The position numbers were made by a program, and so were the translations under genes. From the NCBI RefSeq assembly GCF_004519295.1, contig NZ_SOZH01000003.1, positions 310,001 to 374,000 of the forward strand: a DNA stretch of 64,000 bases, written 5' to 3'. Positions within the stretch are counted from its first letter, which is position 1; the number at the start of each line of letters is the position of its first letter. The notes beneath the pieces are model-generated. The model was not told where the DNA came from and did no database searches. It worked only from the letters and a program-made list of their open reading frames with translations. Below, piece after piece: positions 9,664 to 12,496 of this stretch. This stretch comes from Cellulosimicrobium funkei (GTDB taxonomy: Bacteria; Actinomycetota; Actinomycetes; Actinomycetales; Cellulomonadaceae).

Positions 9664-11289
9664 TCAGCGGGCGGGTTGCTCCGCGCCCGGCGCCACCTCG
9701 TGGAGCCGGCCGTCCCGGTCGAGCTCGAGCAGCACGTCGACCCCGAGGCGGGCGAGGAACCCGTCGTCGTGGCTCACCACGAGCAGCGCGCCCGCGTAGC
9801 CCGACAGCGCCTCGACGAGCCGCTCGACGCTGCGCACGTCGAGGTCGTTCGTCGGCTCGTCGAGCACGAGGAGCTGGGCGGGCGGGTCGGCGAGCAGGAG
9901 CCGTGCGAGCGCGACGCGGAACCGCTCGCCGCCCGACAGCGTGCCCACCGGGCGGTCGACGGCCGACCCGCGCAGGAGCAGGCGCGCGAGGTGGTTGCGG
10001 ACCGTGCCCGGCGCCACGCCCGGGGCGCCGTCGCGGACGGTGTCGAGCGCGCTGCGCGCGTCGTCGAGGCCGTCGCGCCGCTGCGGGAGGTAACCGACCC
10101 GGTCCGTGAGGAGCGTCCCGCCGGCGCGTCCCGGCTCGGGCGCGCGCCCGGCGAGCAGGTTCTCCAGGAGCGTCGTCTTGCCGGTGCCGTTCGCCCCCAC
10201 GAGCGCGACCCGCTCGGGCCCCTGGACGACGACCGTGCGGTTCGTCCCGTGCAGCTCGGCGAGCCGACGGCCGCGCGGGACGTCCGGGTCCGGCAGCACG
10301 AGGTGCACGTGCTCGTCGTCGCGCACTCGGGCCGCCGCCGCGTCGAGCGCCTGCTGCGCGGCCTGGACCTTGGCGTCCAGGCCCTGGCGCATCGAGCCCG
10401 CCGAGACCTGGGCCGCGGACGCGCGCAGCCCCATGGAGATGCGTGACCCGGTGCGGTTCGCCTGGGCGGTCCGCGCCGTCCGCTCGCGGCGCGCGAGCTT
10501 CGTCTCGGCCTCGACGCGCCGGCGCTTCTCGGCGCGCAGGGCCTGCTCGGCGCTCCGCGCGGCCTGCGCCGCCGCGGCCTGGTCGACCTCCAGCTGCGCG
10601 CGCCACGCGCTGTACGGGCCGCCGAACGTGGTCAGCGCGCCCGCGTGCAGCTCGGCGGTCTCGTCGACGTGCTCGAGCAGCTCCAGGTCGTGGCTCACGA
10701 CGACGAGAGCCCCGGGCCAGTCGTCGACGAGCACGGCGAGCCGGGCCCGGGTGGCACGGTCGAGGTTGTTCGTCGGCTCGTCGAGCAGCGTGATCGCGCT
10801 GCGCCGCACGCGCAGGCCGCTGATCGCGACGAGCATCGCCTCGCCGCCGGACAGCTCGCCGACGCGCCGGTCGAGGCCGACGCCGTCGAGCCCGATCTCG
10901 GCGAGCGCCTGGGCGGCGCGCGCCTCGACGTCCCAGTCGTCGCCGACGGCGTCGAAGTGCCGCTCGTCGACGTCGCCGGACTCGATCGCGCGCAGGGCGT
11001 CGAGCGTCGCGTCGATGCCGAGCAGGCGCGCGACGCTCGCGTCGCGGCCGAGCGTGAGCGTCTGGGGGAGGTAGGCGACGTCGCCGGTGGTCGTCACGCG
11101 CCCGGAGGTGGGCGTGAGCAGGCCGGCGACGAGGCGCAGGAGCGTCGACTTGCCGGCGCCGTTGTCGCCGACGAGGCCCGTGCGGCCGGTGCCGAACGTG
11201 CCGGAAAGGTGGGAGAGCGCGACGGTGCCGTCGGGCCACTCGAACGTGAGGTCGGTCAGCGTCACCGCGGACCGGTGCAGGGTGGACAT
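9664..11289 (-). CDS. ABC-F family ATP-binding protein (ribosome protection type)
   Basis: 541-aa protein with two ABC ATPase cassettes and no membrane domain. Cassette 1 has Walker A GDNGAGKST (~41-49), signature LSGGEAM and Walker B ITLLDEPTNNLD. Cassette 2 has GANGTGKTT, LSGGERFRVALARLLL and LLVLDEPTNDLD. A charged helical linker (~230-310, rich in Arg/Ala/Glu) joins them; in ABC-F proteins this linker reaches into the ribosomal P-site region and displaces bound antibiotics. Known members give resistance to macrolides, lincosamides, streptogramins or pleuromutilins; which drug applies here cannot be told. The ATG at 11289 follows AGGAG (11297-11301). A 226-base leader, a hairpin and a short leaderless ORF lie upstream, suggesting attenuation control. 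Confidence 0.9.
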   Translation of the reverse strand: MSTLHRSAVTLTDLTFEWPDGTVALSHLSGTFGTGRTGLVGDNGAGKSTLLRLVAGLLTPTSGRVTTTGDVAYLPQTLTLGRDASVARLLGIDATLDALRAIESGDVDERHFDAVGDDWDVEARAAQALAEIGLDGVGLDRRVGELSGGEAMLVAISGLRVRRSAITLLDEPTNNLDRATRARLAVLVDDWPGALVVVSHDLELLEHVDETAELHAGALTTFGGPYSAWRAQLEVDQAAAAQAARSAEQALRAEKRRRVEAETKLARRERTARTAQANRTGSRISMGLRASAAQVSAGSMRQGLDAKVQAAQQALDAAAARVRDDEHVHLVLPDPDVPRGRRLAELHGTNRTVVVQGPERVALVGANGTGKTTLLENLLAGRAPEPGRAGGTLLTDRVGYLPQRRDGLDDARSALDTVRDGAPGVAPGTVRNHLARLLLRGSAVDRPVGTLSGGERFRVALARLLLADPPAQLLVLDEPTNDLDVRSVERLVEALSGYAGALLVVSHDDGFLARLGVDVLLELDRDGRLHEVAPGAEQPAR

Positions 11290-11303
11290 GGGTGTGCTCC
11301 TCG

Positions 11304-11321
11304 GCCCGCGGTGCCGCGGGC
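11304..11321 (-). promoter_or_regulatory. Hairpin next to the ABC-F ribosome-binding site
   Basis: A GC-only dyad (arms GCCCGCGG / CCGCGGGC) ends three bases upstream of the AGGAG of the ABC-F gene. It could limit ribosome access or act with other leader structures. Confidence 0.45.
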
Positions 11322-11515
11322 GTGGTCGTGCCGGGAAGGTCGGGCGGGCCGTCGTCGCGCGGGCGCGCGGACGGGCCGCCGGTGGCGGGAGCGGTGGGGC
11401 GTCGTCCCGGCACGCCGAGGCCGCGGCACGAGCCGGGCAGGGGTCGCCGACGAGGGCTCCGACGGGGCGGAGCGGGCGAGGGGTGCGCTGGGACGGGCCG
11501 CCGACGGCTCGGCGG

Positions 11516-11542
11516 CTAGAGTCTGTCGACCTCGATGAGCAC
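11516..11542 (-). CDS. Short upstream ORF in the ABC-F leader
   Basis: An 8-codon ORF (GTG start, peptide V/M-L-I-E-V-D-R-L, TAG stop) begins exactly six bases after TAGCAT, the same spacing as the leaderless genes of this window. The ABC-F start lies 226 bases downstream on the same strand. Short uORFs before antibiotic-resistance genes are known to sense stalled ribosomes (erm leaders, actinobacterial whiB7). The proposed role is to sense translation inhibitors and release the ABC-F gene from attenuation (inference). It is too short for homology support; the evidence is promoter geometry and gene context. Confidence 0.5.
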   Translation of the reverse strand: MLIEVDRL

Positions 11543-11548
11543 GTGCCG

Positions 11549-11554
11549 ATGCTA
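11549..11554 (-). promoter_or_regulatory. -10 box TAGCAT upstream of the ABC-F leader
   Basis: TAGCAT on the minus strand ends six bases before the GTG of the uORF at 11542, so the transcript would start at or beside that codon. I see no convincing -35 element. Confidence 0.55.
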
Positions 11555-11593
11555 GCAGCGCGGCCCGGCGGGGTCTGCGGGCGCGGGGGCCCG

Positions 11594-12496
11594 TCACCCC
11601 GCCGGAGCCTGCTCCCGACCCGTGGCGAGCGAGGCGACGAGCGAGGCGACGAGCGCCGCGGCGGCCGCGCCCGGGTGCGGCCGCGTCACGAGCCCGAGGG
11701 ACCACGCCTCCGGCGCGTCGAGCGGCACCGCGACCGCGCCCGGCGCGGGCTCGTACATGTCCGCGGGGACCACCGCGACGCCGAACCCGGCGGCGACGAA
11801 CGCGGGCAGGTCGCCGACGTCGGCCACCTCCGTGTCCGCGCGCGGCGCGACGCCCGCGTGCACGAACGCGCGCTCGGCGACCACCCGGTTGCCGAACCCG
11901 CGCGGCGTCGTCACGACGTGCTCGTCGGCCAGGTCGCCGGGCGCCACCGACCGCGCCCCGGCGAGCGGGTGGCCCGCGGGCAGCACCGCGACGAACGTCG
12001 ACGACGTGAGGCGCGTGTACCGCAGACCGGGGTGGTCCTCGGGCCCGAGCCCGGTGAACGCGACGTCCACGACACCGCGCCGCACGTCCTCCCCGAGGCC
12101 CGTCGACCCGGCGGGCGACGGGGTGAGGCGCAGCACCACGCCGGGGTGCCGGTCCCGGAACGCGGCGAGGGTGCGCGGCAGGCCGAGGTACCCGAGGTTC
12201 GTGAACACCCCGAGCCGCACCGTGCCGCGCACGTGGTGCGGCCCGGGGGCGACGGCGGCGCGGGCCTGGTCGACGGCGTCGAGCACCGCCCGGGCCCGGG
12301 GGAGCAGCGCCTCGCCCTGCGACGTGAGCGCGACCGAGCGCCGCGTGCGCTCGAACAGACGAGCGCCGAGCTCGGCCTCCAGGGCACGCACGCCCGCCGA
12401 GACGCTCGACTGCACGGCGAAGACGCGCGCGGCGGCGCGCGTGAAGCTCAGCTCCTCGGCCACGGCGACGAAGTACTCGAGCTGGCGCGTCTCCAT
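11594..12496 (-). CDS. LysR family transcriptional regulator
   Basis: 300-aa LysR-type regulator. The N-terminal winged HTH (METRQLEYFVAVAEELSFTR, then SSVSAGVRALEAELGARLFE) spans ~1-60. The periplasmic-binding-fold effector domain follows (~88-295), including VRGTVRLGVFTNLGYLGLPR. The ATG at 12496 is confirmed by TAGGGT seven bases upstream (12504-12509), so the message is probably leaderless; the ORF could be extended to 12529 but without HTH gain. It is divergent from an MFS transporter gene across 95 bases, the classic arrangement for a LysR regulator controlling its neighbour and itself. The inducer is unknown. Confidence 0.9.
   Translation of the reverse strand: METRQLEYFVAVAEELSFTRAAARVFAVQSSVSAGVRALEAELGARLFERTRRSVALTSQGEALLPRARAVLDAVDQARAAVAPGPHHVRGTVRLGVFTNLGYLGLPRTLAAFRDRHPGVVLRLTPSPAGSTGLGEDVRRGVVDVAFTGLGPEDHPGLRYTRLTSSTFVAVLPAGHPLAGARSVAPGDLADEHVVTTPRGFGNRVVAERAFVHAGVAPRADTEVADVGDLPAFVAAGFGVAVVPADMYEPAPGAVAVPLDAPEAWSLGLVTRPHPGAAAAALVASLVASLATGREQAPAG

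What the first reader, a model, noticed from the sequence alone, without database searches (positions are those of the whole stretch)
11290..11554. Leaderless 8-codon uORF in the leader of an ABC-F resistance gene
On the minus strand TAGCAT is followed after exactly six bases by GTG and an ORF encoding (V/M)LIEVDRL, then TAG. This is the same promoter-to-start geometry as the leaderless genes of this window, so the transcript would start at the uORF. The ABC-F start is 226 bases later behind a GC hairpin that touches its ribosome-binding site. Known precedents: erm leader peptides, and uORF control of actinobacterial whiB7. The inference is that stalling by the drug the ABC-F protein protects against frees the gene.
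Basis: partly seen in the sequence, partly recalled or inferred. Interest (0 to 1): 0.7.

Follow-up and report, generated by a model that had tools for sequence, protein, structure and literature searches.

The report
Conserved leaderless uORF before ribosome-protection genes
A tiny eight-codon gene at the very start of the message of an antibiotic-protection gene recurs in many actinobacteria and looks like a sensor that switches protection on when a drug jams the ribosome at one exact spot, though this has not yet been tested at the bench.

Summary
Confirmed and extended. A TAGCAT promoter element lies 6 nt before GTG CTC ATC GAG GTC GAC AGA CTC TAG (VLIEVDRL), 226 nt upstream of an ABC-F gene in a Cellulosimicrobium genome. 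I collected 64 such leaders (61 non-redundant) from many actinobacterial genera. TANNNT lies 6-8 nt before the start in 63 of 64. In 59 uORFs with standard spacing, Glu and Asp are invariant with synonymous changes; the core is I-E-V-D-R/K. Arg is AGA/AGG in 52 of 53, against 3.3% of Arg codons in the ABC-F genes; the stop is TAG in 58 of 59. A covarying hairpin starts at the G of that TAG. Val-Asp|Lys is where erythromycin stalls ErmBL, with Arg reported threefold better than Lys. The leader also precedes bL32-Cfr-like-ABC-F operons and Cfr-like genes without ABC-F. Best reading: a drug stall at Asp|Arg keeps the hairpin open and relieves attenuation. Conservation, coding and hairpin are shown; drug, stall and output step are inferred; a further RNA switch is weakly supported. 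uORF control of ABC-F genes is known; this leaderless, ErmBL-like form was not seen among the papers listed in my searches.

The parts
11549..11557 (-). Extended -10 element TGC-TAGCAT, 6 nt before the uORF start
   Evidence: TANNNT at 6-8 nt in 63 of 64 leaders; TG one base before it in 48 of 60
11516..11542 (-). Leaderless uORF VLIEVDRL, GTG start, TAG stop
11497..11516 (-). Hairpin 1, 8 bp, first base is the G of the TAG stop
   Evidence: covariation; 56 of 61 leaders; fold
11444..11479 (-). Hairpin 2, putative (UCGCC...GGCGA outer stem)
   Evidence: predicted folds only; similar second hairpins seen in relatives
11304..11321 (-). GC hairpin just before the ABC-F ribosome-binding site
   Evidence: sequence; similar in genus relatives, not shown to regulate
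11297..11302 (-). Ribosome-binding site GAGGAG of the ABC-F gene
   Evidence: sequence
9664..11289 (-). ABC-F ATPase, 541 aa

Best explanation
The leader is an antibiotic-sensing attenuator. Transcription starts at, or within a few bases of, the uORF start codon and a ribosome initiates at the 5' end. Without drug it translates about 8 codons, terminates at UAG and leaves; hairpin 1, whose first base is the G of that UAG, folds, and the downstream leader keeps the resistance gene or genes off, most likely by premature transcription termination. With a ribosome-targeting drug the ribosome stalls with Asp in the P site and Arg or Lys in the A site, after a chain of 5-7 residues. Hairpin 1 starts at the 12th base counted from the first base of the Asp codon, so the stalled ribosome covers part of its 5' arm and stops it folding; the downstream RNA refolds and the ABC-F gene (elsewhere the bL32-Cfr-like-ABC-F operon) is expressed. 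Shown: promoter geometry, coding conservation, the Asp-Arg-x-stop-hairpin layout, hairpin covariation, link to ABC-F and Cfr-like genes. Inferred: transcript start, the stall, its site, the drug class (macrolide-like, by the ErmBL parallel) and termination as the output.
For: Leaderless spacing in 63 of 64 leaders. Coding constraint on 59 uORFs: E 59/59, D 59/59, V 55, I 3, A 1; R 53, G 4, K 2; over E, V and D 4 departures at codon positions 1-2 against 24 at position 3; AGR 52 of 53 Arg codons against 98 of 2953 in the ABC-F genes; TAG 58 of 59 against 17 of 53. Hairpin 1: 92.9% of cells paired against 87.0% in shuffles, covariation score reached by 0 of 500 shuffles, 4 pairs changed on both sides; 56 of 61 leaders score 12 or more against 6.5% of shuffles. 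Co-occurrence with the ABC-F in the genus, 12 of 12 against 0 of 5. Same leader before Cfr-like genes. ErmBL stalls at Asp10|Lys11 with erythromycin, and Arg11 is threefold more efficient (passages of PMC4935803). Gap from uORF to ABC-F varies from 71 to 714 nt, and about 1.7 kb where a Cfr-like gene intervenes, which fits termination better than direct occlusion of one ribosome-binding site.
Against: No transcript, ribosome or drug data. ErmBL also needs an Arg three residues before the Asp; here that place is Ile in 50 of 59 and never Arg. Four of 59 have Gly, L088 has Thr and L099/L103 have Ile after the Asp, which an ErmBL-like A-site rule does not explain. In masked folds hairpin 2 usually still forms. 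The proposed pairing of the hairpin 1 loop and 3' arm with a distal element is weak as a rule: Fisher p 0.015 over 42 leaders, but 3 of 42 at p<=0.05, the same number as for the control arm (p 0.66), and in a swap test 8 against 9 leaders in the top tenth. No clear terminator is seen in the window itself, and the full-leader fold pairs the ribosome-binding-site region at long range, so translational control is not excluded. Hairpin 1 is weak or shifted in L084, L115, L118, L128 and L129.
Confidence: 0.6

Rival explanations
1. The uORF senses translation stress in general, including slow decoding of the rare AGA/AGG codon, as described for whiB7/wblC uORFs, and is not tuned to one drug class.
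For: AGA/AGG is kept in 52 of 53 Arg codons although it makes up 3.3% of Arg codons in the ABC-F genes, which amino-acid identity alone does not explain. Passages of PMC12421871 say WblC attenuation answers many ribosome drugs and amino acid starvation; the abstract of PMC12121999 describes a multi-drug uORF in E. coli.
Against: The residues before the Arg (E, V, D) are conserved as amino acids; a codon sensor would not need them. Lys codons replace Arg in L077 and L086 and L168.
Confidence: 0.2
2. Peptidyl-transferase drugs (lincosamides, streptogramin A, pleuromutilins) stall the ribosome at the start codon, as reported for are5sc and tiaA, and the rest of the peptide matters little.
For: In passages of PMC12421871 the actinobacterial uORFs are5scL1 and tiaAL stall at the start codon with these drugs and not with erythromycin. 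The link to Cfr-like genes also suggests peptidyl-transferase drugs.
Against: Conservation sits at the end of the uORF and at a fixed distance to hairpin 1. A ribosome on the start codon would leave hairpin 1 free, taking a downstream footprint of about 15-16 nt (recalled).
Confidence: 0.12
3. The conserved block is a DNA operator or an RNA-binding site read without translation, and the ORF is a by-product.
For: Within the genus the stretch from the start codon through hairpin 1 is nearly identical in bases.
Against: Third-position excess in E, V and D, whole-codon length differences (for example an extra GAA codon in several Nocardia), a start codon at fixed spacing from the -10 and an in-frame stop.
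Confidence: 0.04

Closest known systems
Ribosome-mediated attenuators of actinobacterial ABC-F genes: lmrC, are5sc, tiaA (passages of PMC8546547 and PMC12421871)
   Same: Short uORF in the leader of an ABC-F gene of an actinobacterium; ribosome drugs act through it
   Different: Reported peptides MLV, MRS and MVGDDDISG lack the E-V-D-R core, and the uORFs have ribosome-binding sites overlapping anti-terminators; here the uORF appears leaderless and the hairpin starts in its stop codon
ErmBL arrest peptide of ermB (passages of PMC4935803)
   Same: Val-Asp in the nascent chain end with a basic residue (Lys, or more strongly Arg) next
   Different: Stall after 10 residues instead of 5-7; needs Arg7, absent here; controls a methyltransferase by translation attenuation; not leaderless as far as I know (recalled)
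Firmicute ABC-F uORFs: cplR MR[I/M], vmlR MIN, lsaA MAGN (passages of PMC10201436)
   Same: uORF-controlled ABC-F genes
   Different: Three- or four-residue peptides thought to respond to start-region stalling; no long conserved core
Leaderless polycysteine short ORFs of mycobacteria (title and one sentence as cited in PMC13236596; paper itself not held)
   Same: Leaderless short ORF acting as an attenuator in actinobacteria
   Different: Senses cysteine, not drugs
whiB7/wblC uORF (passages of PMC13236596 and PMC12421871)
   Same: Ribosome stalling in a uORF switches on an actinobacterial resistance regulator
   Different: Different target gene and broad inducer range; its uORF sequence was not compared here

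Membership tests
uORF attenuators of ABC-F resistance genes | Conserved short ORF upstream of an ABC-F gene | tested here: met
   64 leaders, 61 non-redundant; three of them (L081, L086, L097) have a Cfr-like gene in between
uORF attenuators of ABC-F resistance genes | Alternative RNA structures that depend on the ribosome's position | tested here: inconclusive
   Hairpin 1 at the stop codon is supported; the alternative helix is weak overall
uORF attenuators of ABC-F resistance genes | Induction by ribosome-targeting drugs | not testable with these tools
   Needs a bench test
ErmBL arrest peptides | Val-Asp followed by Lys or Arg | tested here: met
   D 59 of 59, R or K 55 of 59, V 55 of 59
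ErmBL arrest peptides | Arg three residues before the Asp (Arg7) | tested here: not met
   Ile 50, Glu 5, Asp 2, Thr 1, Pro 1 of 59; so ErmBL-like in possible working, not filed as a member
Leaderless genes | -10 element 6-8 nt before the start codon, no room for a ribosome-binding site | tested here: met
   63 of 64; L020 has 9 nt, L176 and L177 have 10 nt (read)
Leaderless genes | Mapped 5' end at the start codon | not testable with these tools
   No transcript data
Ribosomal-protection ABC-F proteins (NCBIfam NF000355) | Score above the curated cut-off of 380 bits | tested here: not met
   300.2 bits, best of 192 families matched; called ABC-F, with the resistance role likely but unproven
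Cfr methyltransferases (partner gene in L081, L086) | Score above the TIGR04432 cut-off of 550 bits | tested here: not met
   364 and 378 bits, above the RlmN scores of 227 and 221; called Cfr-like only
bL32 ribosomal proteins (partner gene in L081, L086, L176) | Pfam PF01783 and NCBIfam TIGR01031 above cut-off | tested here: met
   69-75 bits against 21.3 and 66-74 bits against 22.6

The most novel reading that the evidence does not exclude
Actinobacteria share a portable drug-sensing cassette: a leaderless uORF whose Val-Asp|Arg/Lys end converged on the ErmBL stall site, set at a fixed distance from a hairpin that starts inside its own stop codon. It drives a ribosome-remodelling gene set (bL32 paralog, Cfr-like methyltransferase, ABC-F) in different combinations.
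Probability: 0.4. Interest if true: 0.8.

Novelty: new variant of a known kind. Interest (0 to 1): 0.62.

Why it matters
Passages of PMC10201436 name the relation between uORF consensus and drug specificity of ABC-F genes as an open question. This leader makes it testable: conserved residues, codons and stop-to-hairpin spacing predict where the ribosome should stall and which changes should abolish induction. If true, arrest at Asp|Arg/Lys is an old and widespread sensing solution beyond erm genes, works from a leaderless start, and a bL32 paralog may belong to drug-induced ribosome remodelling.

Tried and rejected
Hairpin near the ribosome-binding site as the switch: it ends before GAGGAG and is not kept in the distant leaders read. 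Rfam: only a chance-level match (mir-622, E 0.65). Distal pairing of the hairpin 1 loop and 3' arm as a general rule: 57 leaders gave Stouffer -3.3 against +0.4 for the 5' arm, but after dropping 16 near-copies, and 3 more for weak hairpin or short leader (42 left), Fisher p was 0.015 with 3 of 42 at p<=0.05, the same number as the control arm. Partners of 8-10 bp were seen in single lineages, for example L018, L082, L100, L112, L123, so it stays a hypothesis. Structure model of the ABC-F: fold confirmed, subtype not decided. Plasmids: 5 Streptomyces records at 45-48% identity, none covering 80% of the query. RNA-model matches taken as chance: 249 of 394 genomes had some match at E<=0.05; of the 29 non-own loci fetched, ABC-F was found in 9; L048 (32.9 bits) and L050-L068 had none; L171-L175 (29.6-31.8 bits) had none. 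Regex hit L142 rejected as spurious. L088 (Thr after Asp) and L101 (reads through the hairpin, TGA) are not in the 64; both were counted as type A in the tree only. L109 was given to the model search for the covariation alignment but did not reach its threshold (53 of 54 matched).

Full report
OBSERVATION. The sequence is as described: start codon 11542-11540, stop 11518-11516, ABC-F ATG at 11289. The hairpin near the ribosome-binding site (11321-11304) ends one base before GAGGAG and does not contain it.

GENOME. The window's genome shares its genus group with G016, whose contig matches the named record of Cellulosimicrobium cellulans PW in length and place. The ABC-F is 66-75% identical to the 24 relatives aligned from many actinobacterial genera. 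Among NCBIfam models it scores best on the ribosomal-protection ABC-F model, below its cut-off (300.2 against 380 bits). A predicted structure matches ABC-F proteins such as EttA, PoxtA and VmlR2 without deciding the subtype.

CONSERVATION. 59 relatives were searched with the ABC-F; upstream of the best matches the same uORF was read in genus members and in L018-L021. A 48-nt model (R1) over 394 genomes of the class gave, outside the own genome, ten matches at E<=2.3e-5; nine (L040-L047, L049) lie upstream of the ABC-F and one (L048) does not. Over 221 genomes of the family, 26 had matches at E<=1e-4. Of the 27 loci L149-L175, 19 showed the ABC-F; L149 stops soon after the match, probably at a contig end; L165 and L166 have a Cfr-like gene instead; five weak ones have no ABC-F. 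In the genus the uORF is in 12 of 12 genomes with this ABC-F and 0 of 5 without (in G001 uORF and ABC-F lie on different contigs). Of 80 loci from named genomes (the best 80 of a capped scan), 44 carry the uORF (43 by pattern, plus L088). Genera include Nocardia, Rhodococcus, Prescottella, Micromonospora, Microbispora, Streptomyces, Nocardioides, Pimelobacter, Arthrobacter, Oerskovia, Cellulomonas, Leifsonia, Leucobacter, Microbacterium, Cryobacterium and Gordonia. On a quick tree of 94 ABC-F proteins the leader type is clustered: 8 changes for type A against 31.5 in shuffles, and 45 of 53 rows of one branch are type A; types other than A were assigned by a loose pattern.

CODING. Of 64 leaders, 61 are non-redundant and 59 have the standard distance from Asp to stop (L099 and L103 have one codon more). 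Glu is invariant (GAG 50, GAA 9), Asp invariant (GAC 56, GAT 3); Val 55, Ile 3, Ala 1; then Arg 53, Gly 4, Lys 2; the last residue is free. Over E, V and D there are 4 departures at codon positions 1-2 and 24 at position 3. AGA/AGG is 52 of 53 Arg codons against 98 of 2953 in the ABC-F genes; TAG is 58 of 59 stops against 17 of the 53 ABC-F stops within reach. Rows are related, so these are not independent trials, and the pattern used to collect them already asked for part of the core; R1, which works on bases and structure, recovers most of the same loci.

LEADERLESS START. TANNNT ends 6-8 nt before the start codon in 63 of 64 (where several in-frame starts existed, the script preferred the one with this spacing). 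TG stands one base before it in 48 of 60. In L020 the distance is 9 nt, in L176 and L177 10 nt (read), so a few may have a leader of about three bases. In the window, 17 of 18 such sites open ORFs of at least 97 codons.

HAIRPIN 1. It begins at the G of TAG. On 47 distinct rows, 92.9% of cells pair against 87.0% in shuffles, four pairs change on both sides, and 0 of 500 shuffles reach the covariation score (alignment fitted to the structure). Without a fitted alignment, 56 of 61 leaders score at least 12 against 6.5% of shuffles. Counting the first base of the Asp codon as 1, it starts at base 12. With a downstream footprint of about 15-16 nt (recalled), a ribosome with Asp in the P site covers part of its 5' arm, while one on the start codon does not.

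DOWNSTREAM. Predicted folds show a second hairpin in many leaders, in some with a U-run a few bases later. The gap to the ABC-F runs from 71 to 714 nt, and about 1.7 kb where a Cfr-like gene intervenes, which favours transcription attenuation. In the window itself no clear terminator is seen and the full-leader fold (z -2.4) pairs the region of the ribosome-binding site at long range, so translational control remains possible. Pairing of the hairpin 1 loop and 3' arm with a distal element is clear by eye in single lineages, for example a matched change between L112 and L123, but weak as a rule, with a control arm giving as many low p values.

WHAT ELSE IT CONTROLS. In L081, L086 and L097 the uORF (VEMIEVDRA, MGLIEVDKI, VELTEVDRP) lies ahead of a Cfr-like gene and then the ABC-F. 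The Cfr-like proteins of L086 and L081 fit the Cfr model (378 and 364 bits, cut-off 550) better than RlmN; that of L097 is 81% identical to L086. In L086 and L081 a 61-residue bL32 (rpmF) paralog lies between uORF and Cfr-like gene (Pfam 75 and 69 bits); in L097 its counterpart has two cysteines where L086 has four. L176 has uORF, bL32 paralog and Cfr-like gene; L177 has uORF and Cfr-like gene; no ABC-F match was found in the 5.5 and 6.0 kb fetched. Both genomes also have an RlmN above its cut-off. L047 has bL32-like and Cfr-like remnants between uORF and ABC-F. Of 394 class genomes, 3 had a Cfr-like gene at E<=1e-100, all 53% identical; one of the three (L178) has MSTPIADRA with AGA, TAG and a hairpin at the stop. 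This suggests, without proof, that Asp-Arg(AGA)-x-TAG-hairpin is the deepest part.

COMPARISON. uORF attenuation of ABC-F genes is established in Firmicutes and Streptomyces (passages of PMC10201436, PMC8546547, PMC12421871). ErmBL is the nearest arrest peptide: stall between Asp10 and Lys11, Arg11 threefold more efficient, Arg7 and Val9 also needed (passages of PMC4935803). The Arg7 place is never Arg here, so I call it ErmBL-like in possible working, not a member. Among the rows listed (several of them capped lists), no title or shown abstract describes this peptide or a leaderless drug-sensing uORF for ABC-F or Cfr genes. The library lacks most subscription papers and I read no supplements.

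VERDICT. A real, widely conserved regulatory uORF; drug, stall and output mechanism are still to be tested.

Noticed in passing
Upstream of ABC-F in L090, L093, L106, L117, L122, L124, L130-L141, L143-L145, L147 and others: A second leader type: a conserved GTNAGG/GTGTCTGG block, then a short ORF often ending in AR or SR before GCGCTGA (for example MTGIVGLTPLSAR, VKFSGSPSR), on other branches of the same ABC-F family.
   Followed up: partly
L022, L032 (ABC-F) and L179, L180 (Cfr-like) upstream regions: A -10-like hexamer followed after 6-7 nt by ATGTGA or GTGTGA, a possible leaderless start-stop unit; a GTG two bases later is another reading.
   Followed up: no
L086 666-848, L081 676-858, L176 1321-1503: A bL32 ribosomal protein paralog overlapping or abutting a Cfr-like gene, under the same leader.
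   Followed up: partly
L045, L047, L079, L086, L096 leaders, about 80-130 nt after the uORF: Two further conserved stretches, GTCCGCCC...GGGCGTYGAC and CACCGGCACGTTCGCATCGCACCGACC.
   Followed up: partly
window 11594-12496, minus strand: The LysR-type gene upstream has its own TANNNT 7 nt before an ATG at 12496; the sequence just upstream of the uORF in L013 and L016 differs from that in the other genus members.
   Followed up: no
L146, L084, L082: Titles or taxonomy look wrong: L146 (Sphaerisporangium title) equals a contig of a genome in the window's genus; L084 is filed under Oscillospiraceae and L082 printed as cyanobacterial although their ABC-F genes sit among actinobacterial ones.
   Followed up: no
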